From contig NZ_CP142208.1 of assembly GCF_036865545.1 (NCBI RefSeq), positions 2,728,001-2,792,000 of the forward strand: 64,000 nucleotides of DNA. The letters are read 5' to 3'. The first letter of the stretch is position 1; every line of letters begins with the position of its first letter. This document shows, in pieces, positions 1,717-19,301 of the stretch. The translations under genes and the position numbers were made by a program. The notes beneath the pieces were generated by a model. That model was not told the DNA's origin, ran no database searches, and was given only the letters and a program-made list of their open reading frames with translations. The stretch comes from Erwinia sp. E_sp_B01_1 (GTDB taxonomy: Bacteria > Pseudomonadota > Gammaproteobacteria > Enterobacterales > Enterobacteriaceae).

Positions 1717-1787
1717 GTTTTTAAGGGCGAGGCGAGCAAAGGGCGAAATTGCTGGGGGATCTAAGGGCGGACTGCTGTGGCACCGCT

Positions 1788-1870
1788 GGCTGTTCATAAA
1801 GACGCAAACAGCATCGTCCCTGATAGCTCGGCTCGCCACGTCCATGTGGCGAGACGCTTTATTCACAGCC
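1788..1870. repeat. Nested palindromic repeat, copy A
   Basis: Copy A of a dispersed repeat seen again at 11337, 11584 and 19086. An imperfect outer inverted repeat (GGCTGT near 1788, ACAGCC ending 1870) encloses the conserved block GACGCAAA...GTCCCTGATAGCTC and an 8-bp perfect stem CTCGCCAC/GTGGCGAG at 1832-1853 with loop GTCCAT. GACGCTTTATT follows. It sits between the convergent znuB and ruvB genes. Function unknown; a small transposon-like or transcript-end element is an inference. Confidence 0.75.
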
Positions 1871-1932
1871 TTTGTTCCCCTCCCCTCAACTGTAGTGTTG
1901 TCGGTGGGAGGTTTCAGTGACTACTCTCTTCT

Positions 1933-2937
1933 TTATTCTTCGCGTGAAATCCCAAAGTGCTTATAGGCGTGATTTGTTGCCATACGACCACGCGGCGTAC
2001 GCTGGATAAAGCCCTGCTGTATCAGGTAGGGTTCCAGCACGTCTTCGATGGTTTCCCGCTCTTCGCCAATAGCAGCGGCGAGGTTATCCAGCCCTACCGG
2101 GCCGCCCATAAACTTGTCGATGATCGCCAGCAGCAGTTTACGGTCCATATAGTCGAAGCCTTCGGTATCCACACTCAGCATATCCAGCGCGCGGGAGGCG
2201 ACATCCCCGCTCAGGCTTCCTGCGGCTTTGACTTCAGAAAAGTCCCTCACGCGTCGTAGCAGGCGGTTAGCTATACGTGGTGTTCCACGGGCACGGCGGG
2301 CAATTTCCAGCGCGCCTTCTTCGCTCAGTGGCAGGCCCAGACAGGCGGCACTGCGTGAGACGATATGCTGCAGATCTTCCACCTTGTAAAATTCCAGGCG
2401 CTGCACGATACCGAAGCGGTCACGCAGGGGCGAGGTAAGGGATCCGGCGCGCGTCGTTGCACCAATCAGGGTAAAGGGTGGAAGGTCGAGTTTGATACTT
2501 CTTGCGGCGGGGCCTTCGCCAATCATGATATCCAGCTGGTAATCTTCCATTGCCGGATAAAGCACCTCTTCCACTACTGGCGAGAGGCGATGGATTTCAT
2601 CAATGAACAGCACGTCGTGGGGTTCAAGATTGGTCAGCATCGCAGCCAGATCGCCGGCTTTTTCCAGTACCGGGCCAGAGGTGGTGCGCAGGTTCACGCC
2701 CATCTCATTGGCCACTATATTAGCCAGCGTGGTTTTGCCCAGACCCGGTGGCCCGAAGATCAACAGATGATCTAGGGCATCGCCGCGCATTTTGGCCGCC
2801 TGAATAAAGATTTCCATCTGCTCGCGGACCACAGGCTGCCCGACATATTCCGTCAGCAGCTTGGGACGAATGGCGCGGTCAATGACCTCTTCTTCAGTGA
2901 TGGTTCCCGGCGAGACCAGGCGATCGGCTTCTATCAT
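1933..2937 (-). CDS. ruvB: RuvB, Holliday junction branch-migration motor
   Basis: Hexameric AAA+ DNA translocase that with RuvA drives branch migration of Holliday junctions during recombination and repair. Walker [10 protein letters not shown] lies near residue 63 and Walker B LFIDEIH near 112. The sensor segment GATTRAG follows near 158, and a winged-helix C-terminal domain includes the TPRGR motif. The length of 334 residues is close to the usual 336. It lies 7 bases downstream of ruvA in the same operon, so expression should follow the LexA box upstream of ruvA. Confidence 0.98.
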
Positions 2938-2944
2938 GCTTACC

Positions 2945-3562
2945 TCAAATTGCCGCGCGCAGTGCTTCGCGGATCAGCGTTTCACAATCGGCATCCGGAC
3001 GCCCTACTTTGCTGATCATCCGGCTGGCTTCCTGCGGTTTATACCCCAGAGATACCAGTGCGGCAACGGCTTCACTCTCTGCGTCGTTGGCAGCATCGTT
3101 TGGCTGAACTTCACTGGTCAGCGCAAATGGCGTATCGGCAGCAAACAGATCGCCATGCATGCCTTTAAAGCGGTCTTTCATCTCTACCACCAGACGTTCG
3201 GCGGTTTTCTTGCCCACGCCCGGCAGTTTCACCAGTGAGGCAATCTCTTCACGCTCGACGGCGGTGACAAACTGCTGAGCAGACATGCCGGAGAGGATTG
3301 CCAGAGCCAGCTTAGGCCCGACACCGTTGACTTTGATCAGCTCACGAAACAGCGCGCGTTCCTGCTTGCTGTTAAAGCCGAACAGCAGCTGGGCATCTTC
3401 GCGTACCACGAAATGGGTAAAGATGATGGTTTCCTGGTTCAGTTCAGGAAGCTCATAAAAACAGGTCATCGGCATATGCACTTCATAACCTACGCCATTG
3501 GCTTCCAGCAGGACCAGCGGCGGTTGTTTTTCCAGGATGTTGCCTCTAAGACGACCAATCAC
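2945..3562 (-). CDS. ruvA: RuvA, Holliday junction recognition subunit
   Basis: Tetrameric protein that holds the four-way junction flat and loads RuvB. The N-terminus [15 protein letters not shown] is diagnostic. Two helix-hairpin-helix motifs are visible near residues 72-90 ([14 protein letters not shown]) and 107-125 ([16 protein letters not shown]). A flexible linker leads to the C-terminal RuvB-binding domain near 155-205. It is 205 residues against 203 in E. coli. It is first gene of the ruvAB operon; the LexA-type palindrome at 3632-3647 lies about 70 bases upstream. Confidence 0.97.
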
Positions 3563-3622
3563 GTTTTTACCCCTTCTCTTTCAGGTAAGCTTTATATAAA
3601 TAAGAATGCGGAGGTTATAGCA

Positions 3623-3650
3623 TAAAAAAAGCTGGATGAATATCCAGCTT
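3623..3650 (-). terminator. ruvC terminator overlapping the ruvAB SOS box
   Basis: Read on the minus strand, two bases after the ruvC TGA, a perfect 9-bp stem AAGCTGGAT/ATCCAGCTT with a 4-base loop runs into seven T residues. This fits a rho-independent terminator for ruvC. Confidence 0.8.
3632..3647. promoter_or_regulatory. LexA (SOS) box for ruvAB
   Basis: CTGGATGAATATCCAG fits CTG-N10-CAG and closely resembles the known E. coli ruvAB operator (CTGGATATCTATCCAG). It lies about 70 bases upstream of the ruvA start and coincides with the stem of the ruvC terminator. Confidence 0.75.
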
Positions 3651-3651
3651 A

Positions 3652-4176
3652 TCAGGAACGAAGACGGCCACGCGCGAGGTTCAGTTGTCCTTCCCCTATG
3701 CGGGTGATGTTCTGGCTGAGGTGGCAGTGAGTGATGGCGATCGCCAACGCATCGGCGGCATCTGCCTGCGGGCTGGCAGAGAGTTTCAGCAGGGTTTTCA
3801 CCATATGCTGTACCTGGCTTTTTTCCGCGCTGCCGGTGCCCACCACGGTTTGTTTTACCTGGCGTGCCGCATATTCAAATACCGGTAAATCCTGGTTCAC
3901 TGCCGCCACAATCGCAGCCCCGCGTGCCTGGCCGAGTTTGAGGGCTGAATCCGCATTTTTCGCCATAAAGACCTGCTCAATGGCGAAATACTCAGGCTGG
4001 AACTGGGTGATGATTTCACTGACGCCAGCATATATCAGCTTCAGGCGGGACGGCAGATCCGTGACGTTGGTACGAATACAGCCGCTGCCAAGATAGGTTA
4101 ACTGGCGTCCGACCTGACGGATTACGCCGTAGCCGGTGATGCGTGAACCTGGATCGATACCTAAAATGATCGCCAT
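3652..4176 (-). CDS. ruvC: RuvC, Holliday junction endonuclease
   Basis: Dimeric RNase H-fold resolvase that cuts Holliday junctions held by RuvAB. The N-terminus [17 protein letters not shown] carries the first catalytic Asp. [20 protein letters not shown] near residue 65 carries the catalytic Glu, and the C-terminal [13 protein letters not shown] near 138 carries the last acidic pair. The ATG at 4176 is chosen over a GTG one codon earlier because it matches E. coli; the product is 174 residues. It is downstream of yebC, 43 bases away, in the same direction. Unlike ruvAB, no LexA box is seen directly upstream of it. Confidence 0.97.
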
Positions 4177-4219
4177 CACGCTTCTCCGGCCACGGGGTTA
4201 GTCTGTGCTGACAACGCCA

Positions 4220-4963
4220 TTAAAGGGTTGCCGCCACCTCGTCGGAGATCTCACCGTTATGGTAGACTTCCTGCACATCGTCGCAGTCTTCCAGCATATC
4301 GATCAGACGCATCAACTTAGGTGCAGTCTCTTCATCCATATCCGCTTTGGTTGACGGGATCATGGTCACTTCAGCAGATTCGGCCTTGAGGCCCGTCGCT
4401 TCCAGCGCATCTTTGACCTGACCCAGCGATTCCCAGGCGGTGAAGACGTCAATGGTGCCATCTTCATAGGTCACCACATCGTCTGCGCCCGCTTCCAGCG
4501 CCGCATCCATCACGGTGTCTTCTTCAAGACCCGGTGCGAAAGAGACCACGCCTTTACGGGTAAACAGGTAGGCTACAGAGCCATCTGTCCCCAGGTTGCC
4601 GCCGGTTTTGGTAAAGGCATGACGCACTTCAGAGACGGTACGGTTACGGTTATCACTCAGGCATTCCACCATGACTGCGGTGCCGCCGGGGCCGTAACCT
4701 TCATAGATGATGGTTTCCATATTGGTGTCATCATCACCGCCCACGCCGCGTGCAATCGCACGGTTCATGGTGTCACGCGTCATGTTGTTCGACAGCGCTT
4801 TATCCATAGCGGCGCGCAAACGTGGGTTAGAGCTGGCATCGCCGCCACCCAGTTTGGCGGCAGTCACCAGTTCACGGATGATTTTGGTGAAAATCTTGCC
4901 GCGTTTGGAATCCTGCGCCGCTTTACGGTGCTTGGTGTTAGCCCATTTACTGTGGCCTGCCAT
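4220..4963 (-). CDS. yebC: YebC/TACO1-family protein
   Basis: The 247-residue protein begins [20 protein letters not shown], the signature of the YebC/PmpR/TACO1 family. The conserved [23 protein letters not shown] lies near residue 85, shown here only as a landmark. Family members have been described as transcription regulators (PmpR) and, more recently, as factors that help ribosomes through difficult sequences. Which role applies here cannot be told from sequence. It lies between nudB and ruvC on the minus strand, as in E. coli. Confidence 0.95.
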
Positions 4964-4984
4964 AAATTCAATTCTCCATAAAGA

Positions 4985-5419
4985 CTAAATAACGAATTCT
5001 TCTATTGCCTGGCGGTTACTCCAGGACTTGGTGAGCCGGGCTGCTTCAGCAGGCGTAAGCCACTTCATTGCCAGATGCTCGCTTAGCGTCATCTCCCACT
5101 CGGCAGGCAACGCCAGGCTGAACCAGTGCTCACTGTTGTGCGTCACATCCGGCGCATAACGATGGCGGAAGTGGGCGAAGATTTCGAATTGTATCTGACG
5201 CTGGCAGTCAACTACTGTGAGCTGCCTGGCGTTGACATCAATTCCCAGCTCTTCCCGCACTTCCCGCACCGCCGTTTCCGCCAGCGTTTCGTCCGGTTCC
5301 TGGCTGCCGGTTACCGACTGCCAGAAGCTGGGATCGTCCCGACGCTGGAGCATCAGCACCCGCCCGGTATCTCGGGCGTAAATCACCACCAGTACCGATA
5401 CGGGATGCTTAAAGGCCAT
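4985..5419 (-). CDS. nudB: NudB, dihydroneopterin triphosphate pyrophosphatase
   Basis: Nudix hydrolase of folate synthesis that removes pyrophosphate from dihydroneopterin triphosphate. A Nudix box, GX5EX7REVREELGI, starts near residue 38 (GSQEPDETLAETAVREVREE). The early segment VLVVIYARDTGRVLMLQRRDDPSFWQ is typical of NudB. It is 144 residues long. The ATG directly follows the aspS TAA with no gap (TAAATG), so it is probably translated from the aspS message. The same pair is adjacent in E. coli. Confidence 0.95.
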   Translation of the reverse strand: MAFKHPVSVLVVIYARDTGRVLMLQRRDDPSFWQSVTGSQEPDETLAETAVREVREELGIDVNARQLTVVDCQRQIQFEIFAHFRHRYAPDVTHNSEHWFSLALPAEWEMTLSEHLAMKWLTPAEAARLTKSWSNRQAIEEFVI

Positions 5420-7213
5420 TTACTCTTTCTCTGAAGTCTGGTCAGCGGCCTGATACTTTTTCATCACTTCAATGCCCAGCTCGCCCAGCGAGGTTGGGTT
5501 AGCGAAGTTGGGTGCTTCGGTCATCAGGCAGGCCGCTGCGGTAGTTTTCGGGAAAGCGATAACATCACGGATGTTATCCGTGCCGGTCAACAGCATCACC
5601 AGACGATCCAGACCGAAAGCCAGGCCTGCATGAGGCGGCGTTCCGTACTTCAGCGCATCCAGCAGGAAGCCAAATTTCTCGCGCTGTTCCTGCTCGGTAA
5701 TGCCGAGAATACCGAACACGGTTTGCTGCATCTCGCCCCTGTGAATACGGACTGAACCGCCACCCACTTCATAACCGTTGATCACCATATCGTAGGCATT
5801 AGCGATAGCGGTTTCCGGCACGGATTTCAGCTCGTCCGGCGTCATATCTTTTGGCGCAGTGAACGGATGGTGCATGGCAGTCAGACCGCCCTCGCCGTCC
5901 TCTTCGAACATCGGGAAGTCGACAACCCACAGAGGGGCCCATTCGTTACCGTTGGTGATGTTCAGGTCGCGGCCCAGTTTCAGGCGCAGCGCGCCTAAAG
6001 CATCGGCTACCACTTTGGCGCTGTCAGCACCGAAGAAGATGCTGTCGCCATCAGCGGCGTTGGTACGTTCCAGAATCGCTTCAACGATCTCAGCGGTCAG
6101 GAATTTAGCCACCGGGCTGCTGATGCCTTCCAGGCCTTTAGCACGCTCGTTGACTTTCATCCACGCCAGGCCTTTGGCCCCGTAGATTTCAACAAATTTG
6201 GTGTACTCATCAATCTGCTTGCGGGTGAGAGTCGCACCGCCAGGGACACGCAGCGCAGCCACACGGCCTTTGGCATCGTTAGCCGGGCCGGAGAAGACTT
6301 TGAACTCCACCTCTTTCAGCAGATCCGCAACGTCCACCAGCTCCATAGGGTTACGCAGGTCTGGCTTATCGGAACCGTAACGACGCATCGCTTCTTCGAA
6401 GGTCATCATCGGGAACGCCCCGAGATCCACGCCTTTCACATCCTGCCATAATCCACGCGCCAGCTTCTCCATGATCTCACGCACCTGTGGCGCGGTCATA
6501 AAGGAGGTTTCAACATCGATCTGGGTAAATTCTGGCTGACGGTCAGCACGCAGATCTTCATCACGGAAGCATTTAACAATCTGGTAGTAACGATCGAAGC
6601 CGGACATCATCAGCAGCTGTTTGAAGAGCTGAGGTGATTGCGGCAGCGCATAGAATTTACCTTTGTGGACGCGGCTTGGCACCAGGTAGTCACGCGCACC
6701 TTCAGGCGTGGCTTTGGTCAGCATTGGCGTTTCAATGTCCAGGAAGCCGTGATCGTCCATAAAGCGGCGCACAAAGCTGGTGATTTTGGCACGGGCCTTC
6801 AGGCGCTGAGCCATATCAGGGCGACGCAGATCCAGATAGCGGTATTTCAGGCGCGCTTCTTCAGTGTTGGCGTGATTAGAATCCAGCGGCAGAGGTTCTG
6901 AACGGTTGATGATGGTCAGATCGGTGGCGAAGATTTCGACTTCACCGGTGGCCATGTCGCTGTTTTTATTTTTCTCATCACGGGCGCGGACGGTGCCGGT
7001 AAGCTGAATGCAAAATTCGTTACGCAGTTCAGAGGCCAGTTTGAAGGCATCCTGACGATCCGGATCGAAAAACACCTGCACGATGCCTTCGCGGTCACGC
7101 ATATCAATAAAGATCAGGCTACCCAGGTCGCGGCGGCGATTGACCCAACCGCAGAGTGTCACTTGTTGGCCTACGTGAGACAGGTTGATCTGCCCGCAAT
7201 AATCAGTACGCAT
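5420..7213 (-). CDS. aspS: Aspartyl-tRNA synthetase
   Basis: Class II synthetase that charges tRNA-Asp. The N-terminal OB-fold anticodon domain contains [20 protein letters not shown]. Motif 2 appears as [18 protein letters not shown] near residue 217 and motif 3 as [15 protein letters not shown] near 530. A bacterial GAD insertion lies between them. The open frame extends nine codons upstream, but ATG at 7213 ([15 protein letters not shown]) aligns with E. coli and has an upstream GGAT. The product is 597 residues against 590 in E. coli. It heads the aspS-nudB unit; the 290-base gap upstream separates it from divergent yecD. Confidence 0.98.
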
Positions 7214-7504
7214 AACGATATCCTTTAAACTTCGCCGCATCGCCGCAGCATGATTCAGTGTTCAGCCTTGCAAAGCGATCCACTCTTACAAAGCTATGCT
7301 GCCGCGAAAAAAGGCGGCCATTATAATGGAAAAAGCCCGGCGCGATAAGAGCTGTAACCCCATCTGGCCTGACCTTTTCCCGCTTAATTGATCTCAATTC
7401 ACTCACTTCTCACAAAAGCTAACAAATTTCAGCCGTTGCGAACATTGTCGTGGGGGCCTATCACCCGTAATCTCACTGATTTCCCCCTTTTGACCGGAGA
7501 GACT

Positions 7505-8068
7505 ATGTTGGAATTAAATGCGGGCAAGACTGCACTGGTATTAATTGATTTGCAGGAAGGCATTCTGCCTTTTGCTGGCGGTCCTTATGCTGCTTCAGAT
7601 GTGGTAGCCCGTTCTGCGGTGCTGGCTGAAAAATTCCGTTCGGTAAACGCTCCTGTGGTGCTGGTCCGCGTGGGCTGGGCAAAAGATTTTGGCGATGCGC
7701 CAAAACAGCCTGTGGATGTCAGCCACGGCGGTGCACTGCCAGAAAACTGGTGGGATTATCCGGTAGCTCTGGGTAAGAAAGACGGCGATATTGAAGTCAC
7801 CAAGCATCAGTGGGGCGCATTCTACGGCACCGATCTTGAGTTGCAGCTTCGTCGTCGCGGCATTGATACCATCGTGCTGGGCGGTATCTCAACCAACATC
7901 GGCGTGGAATCCACCGCGCGTAATGCCTGGGAGCTGGGCTTCAATCTGGTGGTGGCTGAAGATATCTGCAGCGCCGGCAGCACCGAAGAGCACAACGGCA
8001 GCTTTAAACACATCTTCCCGCGTCTGGGTCGTGTGCGTAACTCTTCAGAAATCCTTTCCGCGCTGTAA
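7505..8068 (+). CDS. yecD: YecD, isochorismatase-family protein
   Basis: The 187-residue protein has the isochorismatase-like cysteine hydrolase fold: [14 protein letters not shown] near residue 10, with the first catalytic Asp, and [20 protein letters not shown] near 135. The family normally has a nucleophilic Cys where the second motif reads NIGVE, so this protein carries Gly there. E. coli YecD, as recalled, has the same change. Hydrolase activity is therefore doubtful and the substrate unknown. ATG 7505 follows CCGGAGAG; an upstream in-frame ATG at 7388 is rejected because the extra residues match nothing in the family. Confidence 0.93.
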
Positions 8069-8074
8069 TCTCCC

Positions 8075-8105
8075 AACCCGCCGGTCAGCGATCCTCCGGC
8101 GGGTT
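8075..8105 (+). terminator. Hairpin after yecD
   Basis: A perfect 10-bp stem AACCCGCCGG/CCGGCGGGTT lies six bases after the yecD stop. The following bases are not a clean T tract, so termination is likely but not certain. Confidence 0.5.
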
Positions 8106-8161
8106 GCGCTCTCTTCACTCACTCGCTACATTTCAGGCAGGTCGCCAATCCGGAAACGCCG

Positions 8162-8986
8162 ATGAAACCTTTTTATCTCGGACTGCCGCAATGGCAGCAT
8201 CCGCAGTGGAAAAAATTGGGTATGAGTACCCTCGAAGATTATGCGCAGTACTTTAACTGTGTGGAAGGCAACACCACGCTATATGCGCTACCGCGTCCTG
8301 AAATTGTTCAGCGCTGGCGCGATATGACCAGCGATGAGTTCCGCTTCTGCTTTAAATTCCCCGCCACCATCACTCATCAGTCTGCCCTGCGTAACTGCGG
8401 CGATTTGACGGCTGAATTTTTCGCTTTGCTTGAACCTCTGGCCCCACGTATTGGTCAGTACTGGCTTCAAATGCCTGGAAAATTCGCTCCCGCCGATTTG
8501 CCCGCGCTTTGGGCCTTTCTTGATGCCCTGCCAGCGTCGTTCAGCTATGGTGTGGAAGTCCGCCATCCCGACTTTTTTGCCAAAGGGGAAGCGGAGCTGG
8601 CGCTGAATCGCGGATTACATCAGCGAGGCGTGAATCGGGTCATCCTGGATACCCGTGGAGTCCACTCCGCCAGGCCCACCAGTCAGGCCGTTATTGACGC
8701 ACAGCGCAAAAAGCCTAAGTTGCCGGTCCATGCCGTGATGACCGCCGATAAGCCCATGATCCGTTTTATCGGCAGCGATGATGCTGAAGCCAACCTGGCA
8801 TGGTTTCAGGCCTGGCTGACCAGGCTGCCGCAGTGGTGTGAACAGGGGCAACCCTGGCTGTTTCTCCATACGCCGGATATTGCCCAGGCACCTGAACTGG
8901 TGCAGTACCTGTGGAAGGCTCTGCAACAGGCGCTGCCTCAGGTGGGCGATCCGCCAGACTGGCCGCAGCAGGCACACCTTTTCTGA
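8162..8986 (+). CDS. yecE: YecE, DUF72 family protein
   Basis: DUF72 proteins form a TIM-barrel-like fold of unknown biochemical role. Landmarks here are FYLGLPQWQHPQWKK at the start, YAQYFNCVEGNTTLYALP near residue 27 and the family segment FRFCFKFPATITH near 60. A later conserved segment, YGVEVRHPDFF, lies near 129. At 274 residues it agrees with E. coli YecE (272). It follows yecD with a hairpin between, so it may have its own promoter. The start has a weak ribosome-binding site, but no better alternative ATG is seen. Confidence 0.93.
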   Translation: MKPFYLGLPQWQHPQWKKLGMSTLEDYAQYFNCVEGNTTLYALPRPEIVQRWRDMTSDEFRFCFKFPATITHQSALRNCGDLTAEFFALLEPLAPRIGQYWLQMPGKFAPADLPALWAFLDALPASFSYGVEVRHPDFFAKGEAELALNRGLHQRGVNRVILDTRGVHSARPTSQAVIDAQRKKPKLPVHAVMTADKPMIRFIGSDDAEANLAWFQAWLTRLPQWCEQGQPWLFLHTPDIAQAPELVQYLWKALQQALPQVGDPPDWPQQAHLF

Positions 8987-9089
8987 GGCTAAGCCTAAGA
9001 TAAATCCTTAACTATGGCGGTCACGCACTGACAGCCAGCGCTTTCACCGCTATGATGAGGCCAGTTATTTATGTGCTTTTGGAGTTGGG

Positions 9090-10335
<1,246 letters not shown>

Positions 10336-10336
<1 letters not shown>

Positions 10337-11301
10337 TGGATTTCGGTAATTTTTACCAGCTTATTGCAAAAAGCCCCCTCTCCCACTGGCTGGAGACGCT
10401 GCCGGCACAAATTGCTGCCTGGCAGCGCGAGCAGTTACATGGACATTTCAAAAACTGGGATCGTTCAGTAGAGCATTTGCCTTCACTGAAGCCTGAGACG
10501 CTGGATTTACTCCACAGCGTAACCGCCGACAGCCCACACCTTAGCGAGCGTCAGCGTGGCGGCATTGAGAGTTTGCTGCGCAATCTGATGCCCTGGCGTA
10601 AAGGCCCCTATTCGTTATACGGCGTGAATATTGATACCGAATGGCGTTCGGACTGGAAATGGGAGCGCGTATTACCCCATATCTCCTCGCTTGCGGGCAG
10701 GACGGTGCTGGATGTCGGCTGCGGCAGCGGCTATCACATGTGGCGGATGATTGGAGCGGGTGCCAACCTTGTGGTTGGAATTGACCCGATGCAGTTGTTC
10801 CTGTGCCAGTTCGAAGCGGTTCGTAAACTGTTAGGCGACGATCAGCGTGCGCATTTACTGCCGTTGGGCATTGAGCAGCTTCCGGAACTGAAAGCCTTTG
10901 ATACCGTGTTTTCCATGGGCGTGCTTTACCATCGTCGTTCTCCTCTGGACCATCTTTTACAGTTGAAAAATCAGTTAGTGAGCGGCGGCGAACTGGTGCT
11001 GGAGACGCTGGTGGTGGAAGGCGGCGATCGTGAAGTGCTGGTACCCGGTGAGCGTTATGCGCAGATGCGTAACGTCTACTTTATTCCTTCAACTGGCGCC
11101 TTAAAGAGCTGGCTGGAAAAGTGCGGCTTTGAAGATGTCCGCATTGTGGATTACTCCGTCACCAGCACCGACGAGCAGCGCCGCACCGACTGGATGACCA
11201 GCGAATCACTGGCGGAATTCCTCGACCCGAACGACCCAACCAAAACCGTCGAAGGTTACCCGGCACCGCTCCGCGCCGTGCTGGTAGCAAGGAAACCTTA
11301 A
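10336..11301 (+). CDS. cmoB: CmoB, tRNA U34 carboxymethyltransferase
   Basis: Transfers the carboxymethyl group from carboxy-SAM made by CmoA to 5-hydroxyuridine 34 of tRNA. The Rossmann motif [18 protein letters not shown] sits near residue 118, and [20 protein letters not shown] near 91 belongs to the substrate-binding part. It is 321 residues against 323 in E. coli. The start overlaps the cmoA stop by one base. Downstream is a 573-base gap filled with palindromic repeats; in E. coli an anaerobic reductase pair (torYZ) lies in this position, and here gldA takes it. Confidence 0.97.
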
Positions 11302-11336
11302 GGTCAGGTCAAAACCGGTGATGTGCAAAGGCGTCA

Positions 11337-11431
11337 CCAGGAAGCACGTTATCCGAGACGCCGTGAACCCGGTCCCTGGGGGCTTTGCTGCCGCGTCCAT
11401 GCGGCAGAAACTCGGCTAACGTGCTCCCAGG
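11337..11431. repeat. Nested palindromic repeat, copy D
   Basis: Copy D, the most diverged of the four copies that keep the core. Outer arms at 11337-11357 and 11411-11431 pair over 21 positions with 4 mismatches (shared core AGCACGTTA). The inner stem CTGCCGC/GCGGCAG at 11388-11407 carries the conserved loop GTCCAT. The left interior (GACGCCGTGAACCCGGTCCCTG) resembles copy A at matching positions. It lies 36 bases after the cmoB stop and could act as its transcript end. Confidence 0.6.
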
Positions 11432-11467
11432 CTCCACCCTTCATTTTCAGTGCCGATTTGTGGTTTA

Positions 11468-11548
11468 GCGGATAAACAGGTCAAAAGCTGGTTGTGGTTG
11501 AGTGATTACACAAAGCAAAAGTGGGTTGGTTTTGACCTGTGTATCCGC
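11468..11548. repeat. 19-bp inverted repeat between copies D and B
   Basis: GCGGATAAACAGGTCAAAA at 11468-11486 is matched in reverse complement at 11530-11548 with one mismatch, leaving a 43-base loop. A third partial copy of the CAGGTCAAAA arm stands at 11305-11314, just after cmoB. It is placed exactly between repeat copies D and B. From 11680 to gldA nothing else was recognised. Confidence 0.7.
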
Positions 11549-11583
11549 CTCGCTCCCGGCGAAACTGAAGCTAACGGGAAGGG

Positions 11584-11679
11584 AGAGTGGGCTGATAAAC
11601 AAAGCGTCCCGGCACATGGACGTGCCGGGCCGAGCTGTCATGGACGACGCTTTTTGCGTCTTTGTGTTCAGCCCACTCT
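11584..11679. repeat. Nested palindromic repeat, copy B
   Basis: Copy B lies in the opposite orientation to copies A and C. A perfect 12-bp outer inverted repeat (AGAGTGGGCTGA, 11584-11595 and 11668-11679) encloses an 8-bp stem CCCGGCAC/GTGCCGGG at 11608-11629. The loop read on the minus strand is GTCCAT. The minus strand also reads GACGCAAAAAGCGTCGTCC, the same block as in copies A and C. Confidence 0.8.
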
Positions 11680-11874
11680 TCCTGACCTGCCGCCAGCCCT
11701 CCAGACAACCTGCCTTTAAGTCCCCCTCTCACTGACCTGCCACCAAGCCATCCAGACCTGCTAATCTCAATGAGAATGCGTATTTTTTCACAAACCCTTT
11801 TTTTAACAAACGCCTTAGCGCTATTCAGTCCAGTATGGAGTCAGCCCGTTTCAATTAACTGAAAGGAGTCCCAC

Positions 11875-12972
11875 ATGAGTAAATTCGTTTTCTCTTCACC
11901 GCGGAAATATGTCCAGGGTGCAGGTGTGATGGCACAGTTAGGTGAGTATGTTGCAGAACTTGGTAACAATGCGTTTGTCGTGGCAGATGAAATTGTCTGG
12001 GGATTAATCGGCAAAGACGTTCAGGGATCCCTGAAACAAAGTCAGATTGAGTTTCACTACGAACAGTTTAAAGGTGAAGCTTCCAGTAACGAAATCACCC
12101 GCCTGGCAGAACTGGCAAAAAAAGGCGGTGCCAGCCTGGTGATTGGCCTGGGCGGAGGTAAAACGCTGGATACGGTAAAAGCCGTGGCCGATGAACTTAA
12201 ACAACCGGTGGTGATCGTGCCTACCATTGCCTCCACCGATGCTCCCTGTAGTGCCCTTTCCGTGATCTACTCCGATACCGGCGTCTTCGAAAGCTATCGC
12301 TTCTACAGCAAAAATCCCGATTTAGTGCTGGTCGATACCCAGGTATGTGCCAGGGCACCGGTGCGTCTGTTTGCATCAGGTATTGCAGATGGCCTGGCTA
12401 CCTTTGTGGAAGCGCAGGCGGTAAAACGCTCGCACAGCAAATCAATGGTCAACGGCGACCCAACCATTGCCGGTATGGCCATTGCCGAAGCCTGTGAGAA
12501 AACGCTGCTGGCTTACGGCTATAGCGCCTACCAGGCGGTTGAAAAGAAAGTGGTCACGCCCGCCGTCGAAGCAGTAGTAGAAGCCAATACCCTGCTTTCC
12601 GGGCTGGGCTTTGAAAATGCGGGTCTGGCCGGGGCCCATGCGATTCATAACGGCTTCACCGCCATTGACGGTGAAATCCACCACCTGACGCATGGTGAAA
12701 AAGTGGCCTACGGCACCTTAACGCAGATGGTACTGGAGCAGCGTCCAGATGAAGAAATTGCTCGCTATATTCGTTTCTATCGCTCCATCAAAATGCCAAC
12801 CACGCTGAAAGAGTTGCATCTTGAAAATGAAAGCTGGGAAAACCTGGTGAAAGTGGGGGCGCTGGCCAACAGTGAAGGCGATACGCTGAAAAACCTCAAT
12901 CCAAATCTGAATGCTGAAGACATTGCCAGCGCAATTCTGGCCGTGGATGCATTCAGCCAGACGGTGAAATAA
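11875..12972 (+). CDS. gldA: Glycerol dehydrogenase
   Basis: NAD- and metal-dependent enzyme interconverting glycerol and dihydroxyacetone (iron-type alcohol dehydrogenase family). The NAD-binding segment is VIGLGGGKTLDTVKAVAD near residue 92. The metal ligands are visible as Asp in GIADGLATF near 171, His in GAHAIHNG near 254 and His in HLTHGEKVAYG near 271. It is 365 residues against 367 in E. coli. ATG 11875 follows GAAAGGAG. It stands alone, bounded upstream by the repeat-rich gap and downstream by a terminator. Confidence 0.96.
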   Translation: MSKFVFSSPRKYVQGAGVMAQLGEYVAELGNNAFVVADEIVWGLIGKDVQGSLKQSQIEFHYEQFKGEASSNEITRLAELAKKGGASLVIGLGGGKTLDTVKAVADELKQPVVIVPTIASTDAPCSALSVIYSDTGVFESYRFYSKNPDLVLVDTQVCARAPVRLFASGIADGLATFVEAQAVKRSHSKSMVNGDPTIAGMAIAEACEKTLLAYGYSAYQAVEKKVVTPAVEAVVEANTLLSGLGFENAGLAGAHAIHNGFTAIDGEIHHLTHGEKVAYGTLTQMVLEQRPDEEIARYIRFYRSIKMPTTLKELHLENESWENLVKVGALANSEGDTLKNLNPNLNAEDIASAILAVDAFSQTVK

Positions 12973-13023
12973 ACGCGTCATTCAGGATAAAGTCAGCGCA
13001 GCAGGCTGGTGCTGTAAATTCAG

Positions 13024-13051
13024 GGCGGCTGGGGCAATTCAGCCGCCTTTT
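13024..13051 (+). terminator. gldA terminator
   Basis: A 7-bp perfect stem GGCGGCT/AGCCGCC with a 10-base loop is followed by TTTT, about 50 bases after the gldA stop. Confidence 0.85.
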
Positions 13052-13123
13052 AAATCATCCGATCACAGCCGCTCTGCCTCTGTGGCTCCTTCTGAAAGCA
13101 CGTCCCCGGCCAAAGAGTGCTGT

Positions 13124-13959
13124 TTACTTTTCCCAGTATTCAAAGCGGTAAGCCGCGCTGATATTGCGGTTAACTTCCCCCTCAGCGAACACTTCGGTTT
13201 CATGAGAATAGCTCAGCGTGCAGTTACCGCGCTCATCCCAGAGCTGACATTCATCCACCGTCACCATTTCGCTGTTGTCAGAATGGGTGGTTGTCGTCAG
13301 TCGCTGCTCACGGTCCTGCTTATCGTAAGACCAGGTCATTTTGCTGTTAGCGGACAACGAAGCCACCAGCTGATTCTTACTGTTCCACTGATAGAGATAT
13401 TCACCGTTAGCCTCGGTATCGGAACCCCTGGCCACGCTTTTTATCAGCCGCAGTTGCGGATCGAAAGTGTTGGTGGTCTCAGTGAAACCTTTTTTCCCCT
13501 GAGCATAAAAGCATCCGTAGCGCTGGTAATAATGCCTCTGGGGCTGACCAGATAATCGATGGTGCCCTGCTTACGGTTGACCTCAACGGGTTTGCCCTCT
13601 TTAACCACATACACCGACATATCGTACACGGCCTGCCAGCCACCTGAAGCCCTGGCAATGCTCTGAACCATCCGCAGCATCAACGCGCCTTCATTCTTGT
13701 CGTAGCTGATATCTGCTCTGATTAGCGCGCCACAGCGGTCAAACTGCCCCAGAATGCGCTTCTGCTGATTGACGTCTTTGCCGAACTCCCCCACCACCAC
13801 CTGCTTAACCGGCCCTTTCGCGGTCCCCCCCAGCATCATAAGACTGTTACTGTCATTGATCTGCTGTGACTGTGCCGGACAAATCTCTGCCGCAAAAGCG
13901 GCGACTGACAGCGCTACCCACAAAGCTAAACACCCTGCGCCCGGCATGATGATTTTCAT
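13124..13959 (-). pseudogene. YnfC-like exported protein, split by a frameshift
   Basis: Two adjacent minus-strand frames form one protein of roughly 278 residues when joined near 13494. The first part starts at ATG 13959 with a signal peptide (MKIIMPGAGCLALWVALSVA) cut near AAFAA. It contains GGTAKGPVKQVVVGEFGKD and runs to FMLRGKK. The second continues FTETTNTFDPQLRLIKSVARG and ends in AAYRFEYWEK. The layout and the repeated YxYDxxxxxxxxT elements recall the E. coli YnfC lipoprotein family, but there is no lipobox Cys at the expected place. The join falls on A6 followed by GG, in phase as A AAA AAG, so indel error, true decay or -1 slippage are all possible. Role unknown. Confidence 0.65.
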
Positions 13960-14033
13960 GAACAATCTCGTCGAAGAAGTAAGGGGATCACTTTCAGTGT
14001 AAAGGCTATTTTCACCCTGCGGCAGATCGGGAT

Positions 14034-14063
14034 GAAAAAAAGCCCCACCAAAATGATGGGGCC
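14034..14063 (-). terminator. cutC terminator
   Basis: On the minus strand a stem AGGCCCCAT/TGGGGCT region with a short loop runs into seven T residues, about 50 bases after the cutC stop. Confidence 0.8.
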
Positions 14064-14115
14064 TGGTACTTGCAAACATCACGTCGTTACTGGCGTGCTG
14101 CGCGGCAAAATCGGC

Positions 14116-14871
14116 TCAGGCGACTCTTACCGGAGAACTGAGTGACAGGGAAATTTTCATCGCTTCCACCATATCACTGTCCACGCAGGTACGACTGAAT
14201 TCATCGGTTTCGGCCGCAGAATTCATAGAGACACCGGCTTTGCGATAGCGCATCGGAGAGGAGACTCTCTGGCTGGCCGAGCTGTGAACTTCGCTCAGGC
14301 CCGCATCAATGAACTTCTGCAAATTGCTGAGGCGAACACCAGCCCCAGCCATAATAATAGGACCGCGCGTGAGCATATTAAGTTCCTTCAGCAACGCTAA
14401 TCCACTTTCGGCACTTTGTTGCTGACCGGAAGTCAGGATCCTGGCCACGCCTAAATCCGTCAGTTGCTGCAGGGCCATCAGAGGACTGTGGCAAAGATCA
14501 AAGGCCCGGTGAAAAGTCACCTGCATGCCTTCGCACAGCGCCATAATTTGCTTCATTCTGGGCAAATCTATATGCCCGTCCACATCCAGTATGCCTACCA
14601 CCACCCCAGGAAAACCCAGTTCACGGATCAGCGCGACATCAGATTTTATTTCGTTGAATTCACTGTCCGTAAAACAAAAATCGCCGCCTCTTGGGCGCAC
14701 GATAGGATGCACAGGCAAGGTCAGGATTTTGCGCGCCTGCTTCAGGCTCCCGGCTGACGGCGTTATTCCGCCCTCTGCGGGCGCAGCGCAAAGCTCTATC
14801 CTGTCGGCACCTGCTTTCTCAGCAGCCAAAGCACAATCTACTCCATAGCAGCATACTTCCAGTTTTAACAT
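14116..14871 (-). CDS. cutC: CutC family protein
   Basis: TIM-barrel protein historically linked to copper homeostasis; the biochemical role is unsettled. Landmarks are [20 protein letters not shown] at the start, [18 protein letters not shown] near residue 24 and [13 protein letters not shown] near 57. [10 protein letters not shown] lies near 119 and [12 protein letters not shown] near 175. It is 251 residues against 248 in E. coli. It lies between the ynfC-like gene and yecM, where E. coli also has cutC-yecM, but here a plus-strand aminotransferase gene interrupts the pair. Confidence 0.95.
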
Positions 14872-14971
14872 TCCATCCTCCCGTTAATGACTGCTGGCTG
14901 GTTGTGTAAACCTTTTCAGATGTTTAGTCTGTTTTCATACTCTAAGATTTATAGTAACGGGAATCCCTGAC

Positions 14972-16131
14972 ATGGCTTGCAATTTTAATGAACGGATCGA
15001 TCGCCGTCACAGCGATAGCCTTAAATGGCATAAATATGGTGATCAGGATATCCTCCCGCTTTGGGTGGCAGACACCGATTTTCGTTCACCAGAATGTATA
15101 ATTGACGCGCTAAAGCAGCGGGTGGAGCACGGTGTATTTGGATACGGCAAGCCGCCTGCCGAGCTAATTGACGTAGTCATCGCCCGCCTGGCTGAGCGCT
15201 ATCAGTGGGAGATCAAACCCGAATGGATAGTGTTTCTGCCTGGCGTTGTCAGCGGCCTTAATCTTGCCGTGCGCGCTTTTACTGAAGTGCATCAGACAAC
15301 CCTCGCCCCAACACCGATCTATCCGCCATTCCGCTCAGCTTCTGCGCTTGCCAACCGCAAACAGTTAAATGCTCAGCTCAGGCTTGAAGAGCAGCGCTGG
15401 GTGATGGATCTCGCCGCCCTTGAGCCACAAATGACCGGCAACGAAAAGCTGTTAATGCTGTGCAATCCCCAAAACCCTGGCGGCACAGTTTATCGCCGCG
15501 AAGAGCTGGAGGAGCACTGGCGCTTTGCCCGTCGGCATAACCTGATAGTCTGTTCGGATGAAATCCATTGCGATTTAGTGCTGGAACCCGGCGTCAGGCA
15601 TATTCCGTTTGCCAGCCTCAGCGAAGATGCGGCGCAGCGTTCAGTCACGCTGATATCCCCTTCCAAGACCTTTAATATCGCCGGGCTGGGCGCTTCCCTG
15701 GCGATTATCCCTAATCCTGAACTGCGCAAACGCTTTATTAACGAGCGCCAGGGCATTGTGCCCGGTGTGGATGTGCTGGCTTATGTGGCGGCCACGGCTG
15801 CCTGGCGTGACGGACAGCCCTGGCTGGATGAGCAGCTTGAGTATCTGCGCAACTCACGCGATTTTCTCACACAAAGGATCAATGCTATCGACGGCCTGTC
15901 GGTGGTGGCACCGGAAGCAACCTATCTGGCGTGGATTGATGCCAGTCAGTTGAAAGTCGCCAGCCCGGCACTCTTTTTGAACGACACGGGCTGGGATTCT
16001 CACCCGGTCGTGATTTTGGCGACGATGGTTTCGTGAGATTCAATTTTGGCTGCCCACGGGCCTTAACTGAAGAAGCGTTGCGGCGTATGGAAAACGCCGT
16101 GAAATCGCTACCCCGTCAAAACACCTTATAG
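14972..16131 (+). pseudogene. MalY/PatB-type cystathionine beta-lyase or aminotransferase, frameshifted near its end
   Basis: PLP-dependent class I/II enzyme of the MalY/PatB branch. Landmarks are LPLWVADTDFRSPECI near residue 28, LCNPQNPGGTVY near 163, the DEIHCDLVL motif near 191 and the PLP-lysine segment SPSKTFNIAGLG near 227. The frame stops early at 16036, but adding one T to the T5 run at 15973-15977 restores FFERHGLGFSPGRDFG, then DDGFVRFNFGCPRALTEEAL. The protein then runs to a TAG at 16129-16131, which is the expected family C-terminus. The restored end abuts the yecM stop. It sits between cutC and yecM, where E. coli has nothing, so it is likely acquired. It may be intact if the missing base is a sequencing error. 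Confidence 0.8.
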
Positions 16132-16692
16132 CTCGCTTTCTACTATCTCTTTCAGGCTCCAGGGATGGAACTTGATGGTAACGCTGCCGTCGGTTATAGC
16201 CAGCGTGGGATTTGGCAGGCGTTCTCCTTCCCCCTTTGGCGAACTGGTTTTAATGGATATCCCCTGCTGAGTCAGTCCTGCATCTGAACACAGGGCCAGC
16301 GCACGCGCACCGAGTTGTTCCACCTCACCCCTTAGCACCACCTCAACATGCTCCCATCCTTCGTGCCTGTAGAGCCGGTTTCCTGGCCAGGGTAGTTCAA
16401 CAACGCTTATCTTCCACGGCCCTACATTCAGGGGCGACTCCAGTTCAAAAAGGGCCACAGGACGACCATTGATCTCTTTCTCGGAAAATAGCGCCCCATG
16501 CTGCATAAATCCGGCTTTCCAGCGCTCTGCGGTGGTCACCTGATGACAACGCACCGCAATGTGATCCACATCAAGACCCGCCAGATCCAATGCCAGCCGG
16601 TCCGCCAGATCGTAAAGGGATTGTAAAAAACGTGGCAAATCATTAGCCAGATCGTTCAGTTCTTCTGCATTTTTGCCTTTAAACAGCGACAT
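16126..16692 (-). CDS. yecM: YecM, predicted metal-binding protein of the VOC fold
   Basis: The 188-residue protein matches E. coli YecM along its length. Landmarks are DLPRFLQSLYDLADRL near residue 18, DHIAVRCHQVTTAERWK near 43, VVELPWPGNRLYRHEGWEHV near 107 and a C-terminal KTSSPKGEGERLPNPTLA. The paired His and Glu residues fit a vicinal-oxygen-chelate fold with a metal site; the reaction is unknown. It converges with the aminotransferase gene, the two stops lying side by side. It starts at ATG 16692. Confidence 0.93.
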   Translation of the reverse strand: MSLFKGKNAEELNDLANDLPRFLQSLYDLADRLALDLAGLDVDHIAVRCHQVTTAERWKAGFMQHGALFSEKEINGRPVALFELESPLNVGPWKISVVELPWPGNRLYRHEGWEHVEVVLRGEVEQLGARALALCSDAGLTQQGISIKTSSPKGEGERLPNPTLAITDGSVTIKFHPWSLKEIVESEL

Positions 16693-16779
16693 TCTTTCAC
16701 CTTACTGTAATTTGTCTAACCATTGTTTTGCGACCCCAGTCTATTACCGGTCCAGCTTAACTGGTGAATAGCCTGCTTA

Positions 16780-16858
16780 AACTGAAAAAATTGCCTCCGA
16801 ATGGCAATTATCAAAACAAGTTCCCAGTTTCGACTGGTTCAGGACCAGCTTTTTATTT
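16780..16858 (+). ncRNA. Candidate small RNA with terminator, yecM upstream region
   Basis: In the gap between yecM and the small ORF there are two successive stem-loops on the plus strand. The first is AATTGCC/GGCAATT (16789-16809, 7-bp perfect stem). The second is CTGGT/ACCAG (16834-16848), followed directly by CTTTTTATTT. Nothing upstream on this strand needs a terminator, since yecM runs the other way, so a short independent transcript is possible. No convincing promoter was found. The rest of 16693-16995 is AT-rich and shows nothing else. Confidence 0.3.
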
Positions 16859-16995
16859 AGAAAATGCGCCTTAACTTTCTGTTTTAGTTTAGTTAAATTT
16901 ATACAATGCGACTATTCTTAAATCCCGCGCAATACGTTGTAGGGTATTCTGGATTCTTATAGATTTATTCCGACCCTCATACAAGGAAAAGCAAA

Positions 16996-17133
16996 ATGCT
17001 TATGTTAATTTTATGTGCAGCGCTGATTGCGATGATGGGGTTTGCTCTGGTTCGCCATTGGAAGGTTCGTAATGACAAAAATACCATTGCAAGTCCGCAT
17101 CGCCCTCACCGCGCAGCCCGTCGCCGTACCTGA
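16996..17133 (+). CDS. Small membrane protein, 45 residues
   Basis: Short frame MLMLILCAALIAMMGFALVR followed by a strongly basic tail (HWKVRNDKN, then many Arg and His to the end). An AAGGA sits 8 bases before the ATG. One membrane segment (residues 2-20) and a positive C-terminal tail fit a single-span inner-membrane protein with the tail in the cytoplasm. A GGCGGAAA/TTTCCGCC hairpin follows the stop. No family was recognised. The ribosome-binding site and clean hydrophobic/basic division support it, but the shortness leaves doubt. Confidence 0.5.
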   Translation: MLMLILCAALIAMMGFALVRHWKVRNDKNTIASPHRPHRAARRRT

Positions 17134-17348
17134 TTACTCTGGCGGAAAACAGTCACAGCACTGCTTTCCGCCGCCATTCCCCTCATCTTCCCCTCCTGTA
17201 TGCAGGTTCCTGGATAACTGAACCGGAAATACAGTATACTTTTCCCCTTATTTTTTAAGCGGTGCCATTATACAAATTTCTGTTGTATGGCGTCGTGAAA
17301 GGTGATGGTCTGCGCACCTGCAGACTTTTTAGCATATAAGGTAACCCG

Positions 17349-19079
17349 GTGAATATTCAGGCTCTTCTCTCAGAAAAAGTCAGTCAGGCGATGATCGCAG
17401 CAGGGGCGCAGGCCGACTGCGAACCGCAGATACGTCAGTCAGCTAAAGCCCAGTTTGGCGACTATCAGGCAAATGGCATTATGGCCGTTGCCAAAAAGCT
17501 GGGCATGGCGCCCCGACAACTGGCAGAAGAAGTCCTCAAACATCTCGATCTCACGGGCATCGCCAGCAAAGTTGAAATCGCCGGACCGGGCTTTATTAAC
17601 CTGTTCCTCGATAAAAACTGGCTTTCCACCCAGATAGATAAAGTCTGCGCTGCGCCACGTCTCGGCGTTGAGCCCGTCACTCCGCAGACTATCGTCATCG
17701 ACTACTCCGCGCCGAACGTGGCAAAAGAGATGCATGTCGGTCACGTGCGTTCAACTATCATCGGTGACGCTGCGGTGCGGACTCAGGAGTTCCTGGGGCA
17801 TAAAGTGATCCGCGCTAACCACGTTGGCGACTGGGGCACGCAGTTCGGGATGCTGATCGCCTTCCTGGAGAAGCAGCAGAACGAGCAGCATGAAGAGATT
17901 GCGCTGTCCGATCTGGAAGCCTTCTACCGTGAAGCTAAACGTACTTATGATGAAGATCCGGTCTTTGCCGAGCGTGCGCGTGGCTACGTGGTAAAACTGC
18001 AGGGTGGCGATGAATATTGCCGAGCCATGTGGAAAAAGCTGGTGGACATCACCATGGCGCAAAATCAGATCATCTACGATCGCATGAATGTGACGCTGAG
18101 CCGCAAAGATGTGATGGGTGAGAGCCTGTATAACGACATGTTGCCGGGCATCGTGGAAGACCTGAAAGCCAAAGGTCTGGCCGTGGAAAGTGAAGGTGCC
18201 ACCGTAGTCTTCCTGGATGAATACAAAAACAAAGATGGCGATCCGATGGGCGTGATCATCCGTAAAAAGGATGGCGGCTACCTCTACACCACCACGGATA
18301 TTGCCTGCGCCAAATACCGCTTTGAAACGCTGCATGCCGATCGTGTGCTTTACTACATCGATTCCCGTCAGCACCAACATCTGATGCAGGCATGGACGAT
18401 TGTCCGTAAAGCCGGATACGTGCCCGAGTCTGTCTCTCTGGAGCACCATGCGTTTGGCATGATGCTGGGCAAAGATGGCAAGCCGTTTAAAACCCGTGCT
18501 GGTGGTACCATCAAACTCTCTGACCTCTTGGATGAAGCGGTAGAACGCGCCACCAAACTGGTCGGCGAAAAGAACCCCGATATGCCTGCCGATGAGCTGA
18601 AGAAGCTGGCGAACAGCGTGGGTATCGGTGCAGTTAAATATGCCGATCTCTCCAAGAGCCGCACCACGGACTATATCTTCGACTGGGATAACATGCTGGC
18701 CTTTGAGGGCAACACCGCGCCTTACATGCAGTATGCCTATACCCGTGTGCTGTCGGTATTCCGTAAAGCGGGGATTGATGAGTCTGGCGTCACCGGCGCA
18801 ACGCAGATCGCTGAAGATCGTGAAGCGGCGCTGGCCGTTCGTTTGCTGCAGTTTGAAGAAACCATCACTCAGGTCGCCCGTGACGGTACGCCACATGTAA
18901 TGTGTGCTTACTTATACGATCTGGCCGGTCTGTTCTCTGGTTTCTATGAGCACTGCCCTATCCTCTCCGCTGCTGATGAAGCGACAAAACAGAGCCGCCT
19001 GAAGCTGGCCCTGCTCACCGCGAAGACCCTGAAGCAGGGTCTGGATACCCTGGGTATCGACACTGTAGAGAAGATGTAA
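17349..19079 (+). CDS. argS: Arginyl-tRNA synthetase
   Basis: Class I synthetase charging tRNA-Arg. The HIGH-like motif is seen as [20 protein letters not shown] near residue 120. The DALR anticodon-binding domain occupies the last ~150 residues, beginning near [20 protein letters not shown]. It starts with GTG at 17349 ([15 protein letters not shown]), which aligns with E. coli, with AGGTAACC upstream. It is 576 residues against 577. It is transcribed alone; a nested palindromic repeat begins 7 bases after its stop and may terminate it. Confidence 0.98.
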
Positions 19080-19085
19080 AACGCC

Positions 19086-19289
19086 AAAAGGACGGAGAAA
19101 TCCCTCCTTTAAGGTTGTTAATTGAACGCAGGCTCAGGGAGCATATGCCTCTCACAAAGACGCAAAAAGCGCCATCCCTGCCAGCTCAGCACGGGCCGTC
19201 CGTGGCCCGTGATGCTTTGTTCAAGGCATATGCTCCCATCGCTTCGGGGTTCGTAAGCCGTCTGAAAGGACTGAGAACTCCGTCCTTTT
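19086..19289. repeat. Nested palindromic repeat, copy C (longest)
   Basis: Copy C shows three nested perfect inverted repeats. The outer is AAAAGGACGGAG (19086-19097 and 19278-19289), the middle GGGAGCATATGCC (19137-19149 and 19225-19237) and the inner ACGGGCC/GGCCCGT (19191-19210), with loop GTCCGT. Between middle and inner lies CACAAAGACGCAAAAAGCGC, the conserved block. It fills nearly the whole argS-flhE gap, where both genes end. Confidence 0.85.
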
Positions 19290-19301
19290 AGTTATACCAG
19301 T

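What the first reader, a model, noticed from the sequence alone, without database searches (positions are those of the whole stretch)
1788..19289. Dispersed nested-palindrome repeat with a conserved GTCCRT loop and compensating stems
Copies at 1788-1870, 11337-11431, 11584-11679 and 19086-19289 all lie between genes. All have an inner stem whose sequence differs (CTCGCCAC, CTGCCGC, CCCGGCAC, ACGGGCC) yet stays perfectly paired, closing the same hexaloop GTCCAT or GTCCGT. Copies A, B and C share the flank GACGCAAA-(N)-AGC and GAYGCTTTRTT, and outer arms again differ but pair. Paired change with a fixed loop suggests selection on the folded form, in DNA or RNA. I do not recognise it as ERIC, REP or BOX.
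Basis: partly seen in the sequence, partly recalled or inferred. Interest (0 to 1): 0.75.

Follow-up and report, generated by a model that had tools for sequence, protein, structure and literature searches.

The report
Mobile repeat with paired CsrA-type hairpins
The scattered DNA repeat in this window belongs to a known family of small mobile sequences (YPAL/RU-2) found at gene ends, and one strand of it encodes two RNA hairpins that match the preferred binding site of the global regulator CsrA, a pattern kept in distant bacteria although much of the rest changes.

Summary
The repeat is real: A, C and D are one family, B a diverged subfamily of the same fold; the genome has 44 model hits. It is a catalogued repeat: the printed YPAL/RU-2 sequence aligns end to end with D (123 against 57±6 for shuffles). 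26 of 40 copies lie between convergent genes. At D a terminator hairpin is duplicated; of 30 loci examined at that site 28 lack a model hit.

Not found in print here: on the other strand the fixed loop reads AYGGAC, and a second hairpin carries another A-N-GGA-X loop. The published high-affinity CsrA/RsmE site is an ANGGAX hexaloop on a stem. A model with both loops blanked still finds elements with ANGGAX in 59 of 60 (loop I) and 55 of 60 (loop II) fetched hits, and as a pair in 22 of 26 rows outside the order. Stems covary.

I infer a two-site CsrA-binding RNA module on a mobile repeat. Binding, expression of that strand and the mobilising enzyme are untested. Rfam's Ysr224 lies on the opposite strand, and insertions show no strand bias; both argue against a simple host sponge.

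The parts
1776..1884 (-). Copy A (YPAL-type element core; ANGGA strand is -). Hairpin I loop 1840-1845, hairpin II loop about 1816-1821
   Evidence: R1 hit G000:C1:2729776-2729884:-, 98.6 bits; blastn; sequence
11331..11439 (-). Copy B, second subfamily, ANGGA strand -. Hairpin I stem 11388-11407, loop 11395-11400; second GGA loop about 11372-11377 (closing pair C/C, not standard)
   Evidence: R2 hit G000:C1:2739331-2739439:- 48.8 bits; R1 44.8 bits
11576..11685 (+). Copy C, ANGGA strand +. Hairpin I stem 11608-11629, loop 11616-11621 (ATGGAC); hairpin II loop 11640-11645 (ATGGAC). Inverted to B, starts about 250 bp apart
   Evidence: R1 hit G000:C1:2739576-2739685:+ 115.9 bits
19110..19266 (-). 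Copy D, ANGGA strand -, RU-2-like ends included; model core 19134-19242. Hairpin I loop 19198-19203, hairpin II loop 19174-19179
   Evidence: R1 hit G000:C1:2747134-2747242:- 117.4 bits; alignment to printed RU-2; ends read from that alignment
19087..19113 (.). Left copy of the duplicated hairpin (terminator-like, read by eye) at D
   Evidence: 23 of 27 identity to the right copy; relatives G022 and G048 show one such hairpin and no element here
19265..19291 (.). Right copy of the duplicated hairpin at D, followed by T-run
17349..19079 (+). 576-aa ORF upstream of D (looks like argS; name recalled, the family search failed)
   Evidence: its 3' part was the query for the filled/empty comparison

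Best explanation
The copies are members of the YPAL/RU-2 family of small non-autonomous mobile repeats. Shown: they lie at gene 3' ends, mostly between convergent genes; at some sites a whole hairpin is duplicated on both sides; one strand folds as a closing stem plus a compact junction with two hairpins; both hairpin loops are A-N-GGA-X, usually on a C-G closing pair, while stems, N and X change. Inferred: when that strand is transcribed it displays two CsrA/RsmA sites about 24 nt apart, which one CsrA dimer could bridge, so each transcribed copy acts as a local CsrA-binding site or decoy in a 3' region. If all 44 model hits kept both sites, that would be nearly 90 sites. Because strand orientation at insertion looks neutral, I think the module was first kept for the element's own benefit (RNA protection or control of its spread), with any host regulation secondary.
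For: RU-2 as printed aligns with D end to end, 123 against 56.7±6.5, max 80 in 500 shuffles. Covariation. In 79 distinct 73-nt cores loop I is A 79, G 79, G 76, A 79 and loop II A 79, G 78, G 79, A 79, with N and X variable (17 of the 79 came from a pattern that fixes loop II). Loop-blind model R2: 59/60 and 55/60 exact ANGGAX, GGA in 59/60 for each loop (60 of the listed places, one a training place). Outside the order: 22 of 26 rows from 18 genomes have both loops. Published CsrA/RsmE high-affinity consensus: ANGGAX hexaloop directly on a stem, N and X looped out, C-G closing (PMC4005645, passages); CsrA sites generally come in pairs (PMC4333381, passages). CsrA and CsrB genes present. A conserved A.G mismatch in the closing stem (A 83 of 86, G 84 of 86) resembles the tandem-GA noted for TwoAYGGAY. 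Location. Duplications and empty sites.
Against: No binding or expression data here. Rfam's Ysr224 is on the opposite (UCC) strand, so that catalogued transcript would not show GGA loops. No strand bias in tandem contexts: 4 sense, 7 antisense and 13 sense, 12 antisense. Strand evidence from wobble pairs is weak: in the core 37 G-U against 12 A-C, but 30 of the 37 come from two pairs; over all 37 pairs of the 38-row alignment only 27 against 20; 40 against 3, 26 of them from one pair and aligned by a model of this strand. Some copies lack a perfect site: L090 loop I begins with C, L008 loop II lacks N. B's second loop has no standard closing pair.
Confidence: 0.6

Rival explanations
1. The fold matters as DNA: single-stranded or cruciform hairpins with fixed loops are recognised by the enzyme that moves the element, and the likeness to CsrA sites is coincidence.
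For: The elements are mobile repeats with target duplication; long outer stems; no strand bias at insertion; weak wobble evidence for an RNA strand.
Against: N and X vary as the CsrA code allows. A Y1 (single-strand) transposase has no match in this genome despite 44 model hits and does not track the repeat in the genus: 6 of 23 genomes with hits, 6 of 14 without. Other transposase families were not searched.
Confidence: 0.2
2. It is simply a 3'-end stabilising or terminating RNA structure; the loops are kept for another RNA-binding protein or for the fold.
For: Position between convergent genes (26 of 40; 26 of 61 in other genomes); YPAL might influence stability of upstream transcripts (PMC2229807, passages).
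Against: Two ANGGAX loops are kept with different stems across families; that this hexaloop is not a stability motif is recalled.
Confidence: 0.15
3. RNA-mediated spread (a bacterial SINE-like element): variable target duplications of 3-26 bp and a conserved RNA fold would fit target-primed reverse transcription.
For: Variable duplications; long hairpin duplications; conserved fold.
Against: This genome has no reverse transcriptase match (PF00078), and RT does not track the repeat: 7 of 23 genomes with hits, 7 of 14 without.
Confidence: 0.05

Closest known systems
YPAL / RU-2 (Yersinia palindromic sequence, De Gregorio 2006, not held; Delihas 2007, passages)
   Same: Length, terminal sequences, internal hairpins, intergenic place, target duplications at dyad symmetry
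   Different: Named in the passages for Yersinia and Erwinia carotovora (one survey table also gives a few in E. coli); PMC2759123 holds no mention of CsrA. Here: many more genomes, subfamilies, inverted B/C-type pairs, the CsrA-type loops
Ysr224 (Rfam RF02770)
   Same: Elements in three other genomes score above its cut-off (L145 74.7, L146 83.6, L158 71.5); expressed copies reported in Yersinia ruckeri (PMC12112432, passage)
   Different: C and B score only 17.2 and 14.8 against a cut-off of 70; Rfam models the opposite strand with another consensus structure
TwoAYGGAY RNA (Rfam RF01731, clan CL00106)
   Same: Two AYGGAY hairpins and tandem-GA in a stem; proposed CsrA-binding RNA (PMC4333381, passages). 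A neighbour of an element in L120 scores above its cut-off (45.3 against 43)
   Different: Window copies do not reach the cut-off; not called a mobile repeat in the passages seen
CsrB/CsrC, RsmX/Y/Z (CsrA-sequestering sRNAs)
   Same: Several A(N)GGA sites; CsrB shares an Rfam clan with TwoAYGGAY
   Different: Single genes with many sites; here two sites per dispersed mobile copy, promoter unknown

Membership tests
YPAL/RU-2 | Sequence relationship to the printed 168-nt RU-2, including both ends | tested here: met
   D: 123 against shuffles 56.7±6.5, max 80. C 105, A 98, B 80 by the same alignment; shuffles were run for D only, so B is not settled by this test
YPAL/RU-2 | Intergenic place | tested here: met
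   26 of 40 convergent, 11 tandem, 2 divergent, 1 unclear (simple ORF calls; some short ORFs overlap copies). Window background 7 of 57 neighbouring ORF pairs convergent
YPAL/RU-2 | Target duplication of 3-26 bp at or next to dyad symmetry | tested here: met
   10 of 40 loci above the 99% null: 8 duplicate a hairpin of 20-27 bp, 2 (L006, L008) lie in longer repeats; 30 of 40 not above the null, two of them (L020, L027) suggestive. The stretches compared suit D-type ends best
YPAL/RU-2 | Filled and empty sites | tested here: met
   37 genomes matched the query, 30 loci were held and examined: 2 filled (own, G050), 28 without a model hit; G022 and G048 with one hairpin. Diverged remnants could be missed (L270 looks like one by eye)
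CsrA-binding RNA | A(N)GGAX loops on stems, in pairs | tested here: met
CsrA-binding RNA | Binds CsrA and is transcribed on that strand | not testable with these tools
   No expression or binding data; Ysr224 is on the other strand
Ysr224 RF02770 | Score above the Rfam cut-off | tested here: not met
   C 17.2 and B 14.8 bits; no window match at gathering
TwoAYGGAY RF01731 | Score above the Rfam cut-off | tested here: not met
   No window match at gathering
REP/RAYT system | Y1 (RAYT-type) transposase in the genome | tested here: not met
   No PF01797 match in G000
ERIC, BOX | Sequence match to the published consensus | not tested
   Not aligned; PMC2229807 separates YPAL from ERIC by termini (passages)

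The most novel reading that the evidence does not exclude
A superfamily of mobile intergenic repeats, spread across the class (Gammaproteobacteria, as Pantoea is a named holder) and including YPAL/RU-2, Ysr224 and perhaps TwoAYGGAY, carries a conserved two-site CsrA/RsmA-binding RNA module, so that genomes hold tens of dispersed CsrA decoys or 3'-end CsrA sites that buffer free CsrA and rewire its network whenever copies move.
Probability: 0.45. Interest if true: 0.85.

Novelty: new variant of a known kind. Interest (0 to 1): 0.7.

Why it matters
CsrA activity is usually explained by a few sponge RNAs such as CsrB. If tens of mobile copies per genome also bind CsrA, models of the CsrA network miss a large and fast-evolving pool of sites, and a repeat family of unclear function gains a testable role. 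It would also join three separately catalogued items (YPAL/RU-2, Ysr224, TwoAYGGAY).

Tried and rejected
Reverse transcriptase or Y1 transposase as mobiliser: neither has a match in this genome, and neither tracks the repeat in the genus. Host sponge selected by strand: no orientation bias. Plasmid or phage origin: copy C matches 23 of 72,556 plasmid records, all Pantoea; one distant core (from L286) finds none in plasmids, phages or E. coli genomes; one pattern finds 2 viral contigs, not read further. A multiple alignment of the C-type neighbourhood gave only partly shared, tandem-like flanks and was not pursued. The first loop-blind alignment misplaced loop II and was replaced. An IS1182-type mobiliser (recalled) was not tested. 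Paper searches: CsrA with repetitive element, intergenic and GGA motif: 0 papers; Pantoea/Erwinia palindromic intergenic repeat: nothing pertinent among the 15 of 98 listed; CsrA with YPAL: 0; CsrA with miniature inverted-repeat: 1, an Rfam update that does not link them in the passages shown. The library lacks most subscription papers, among them De Gregorio 2006, so absence in print is not established.
Full report
What is there. The four places were read. A, C and D align; B does not share their flanks. Each folds better than nearly all shuffles. Copy C has 40 blastn hits in the 4.80 Mb genome. A covariance model from 38 of 94 copies, kept as non-redundant (R1), has 44 hits there at E<=0.001, of which 43 are listed, at distinct places. 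B finds 7 further strong matches and one marginal (E 0.74). Six of the eight strong B-type copies, B included, start 253-373 bp from a C-type copy and are inverted to it.

Structure. On 38 rows 94.0% of 1406 cells pair, 27 of 37 pairs have changes on both sides, and the score is 0.491 against 0.171±0.010 for shuffles (0 of 500 reach it) and at most 0.096 for slid versions. The structure was derived from these sequences, which favours it over the slid versions.

The loops. Of 102 distinct elements 86 have a 73-nt core and 79 of these are distinct: 33 own, 29 from two genomes of the genus, 17 named. In the 79 both loops are A-N-GGA-X almost without exception while N and X vary. The 16 elements dropped are mostly a longer Pantoea form, two truncated copies and four of other length; among these L090 and L008 have an imperfect loop. 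The 17 named ones came from a pattern that fixes loop II. I therefore built R2 from 9 diverged rows with both loops blanked. R2 hits 55 of 394 genomes of the order at E<=0.001 (15 of 114 genera) and 20 of 369 of the class at E<=0.0001, 18 of them outside the order. Of the places listed (a capped list, about 150 by my estimate) I fetched 60, chosen by hand for spread over genomes: loop I is exact ANGGAX in 59, loop II in 55, and GGA lies in the loop in 59 of 60 for each. One of the 60 (L195) is a training place. Outside the order I read 26 rows from all 18 genomes: 22 have both loops, and L290, L306, L308 and L309 do not (L288 was dropped as same order). With the loop-aware R1 the hits were 23 of 37 genomes of the genus at E<=0.001 and 34 of 295 of the order at E<=0.0001. 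Named holders are Pantoea species, Mixta theicola and a Plautia stali symbiont and Pantoea plasmid records.

Why CsrA. PMC4005645 (passages) defines the high-affinity CsrA/RsmE site as an ANGGAX hexaloop placed directly on a stem, with C-G closing and N and X looped out. The repeat keeps these positions and frees N and X. CsrA and CsrB are encoded in this genome. TwoAYGGAY, proposed as a CsrA-binding RNA with tandem-GA (PMC4333381, passages), shares clan CL00106 with CsrB, and a neighbour of an element in L120 matches it. In the window four of the five ANGGA hexaloop hairpins with 6 or more pairs are A-D. That count by itself is weak: 60 first-order simulations give 1.2 on average with a maximum of 5, and another loop class (CGC) also has 5.

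What it is. PMC2759123 prints RU-2 (passages); D aligns with it along its whole length. PMC2229807 (passages) gives YPAL/RU-2 target duplications of 3-26 bp at or next to dyad symmetry, empty and filled sites, and a possible effect on upstream transcripts. Here 26 of 40 own copies lie between convergent genes, against 7 of 57 neighbouring ORF pairs in the window, a rough background; in 61 loci from other genomes it is 26, with 25 tandem, 4 divergent and 6 unclear. At 10 of 40 loci the flanks share a repeat above the 99% null; 8 of these are hairpins. The 3' part of the 576-aa ORF before D was found in 37 of 37 genomes of the genus, and 30 loci were held: 2 hold an element (own and G050), each between two hairpin copies, 28 have no model hit, and G022 and G048 have a single hairpin. 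Whether G050 is the same or an independent insertion is open.

Against. Ysr224 is modelled on the other strand. Insertions in tandem contexts show no preference for the GGA strand (4 against 7; 13 against 12). The wobble-pair evidence for the strand is weak: 37 G-U against 12 A-C in the core, largely from two pairs, and 27 against 20 over all pairs. No expression, binding or mobility data were available. The genus of the window was not established.

Noticed in passing
window 11331-11685; L142, L121, L126, L127, L130, L133, L149, L150: Two different subfamilies of the element often sit as inverted pairs, about 160-375 bp start to start, so transcription from either side would yield one GGA strand.
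   Followed up: partly
L120 1294-1364 (-): A TwoAYGGAY (RF01731) match lies next to a YPAL-type element in inverted orientation.
   Followed up: partly
L053, L054, L055, L061, L066, L069, L073, L074, L077, L080: Longer copies in Pantoea records with an inserted stretch that carries a further hairpin, with an ANGGA loop in nine of ten (L080 reads AGAGAT).
   Followed up: no
L038, L091, L092 (genome G006): Tandem arrays of three elements with a period of 157-159 bp.
   Followed up: no
L003, L005, L015: Tandem-like flanking repeats around C-type copies.
   Followed up: no
G052 (same genus): 64 Y1 transposase matches, many without internal stops, in a genome without a hit for this repeat.
   Followed up: no
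L112 1501-1752 and 2652-2769: A weak CsrB-like match (23.3 bits, below cut-off) lies about 0.9 kb from Spot 42 RNA; it might be CsrC, not resolved.
   Followed up: no
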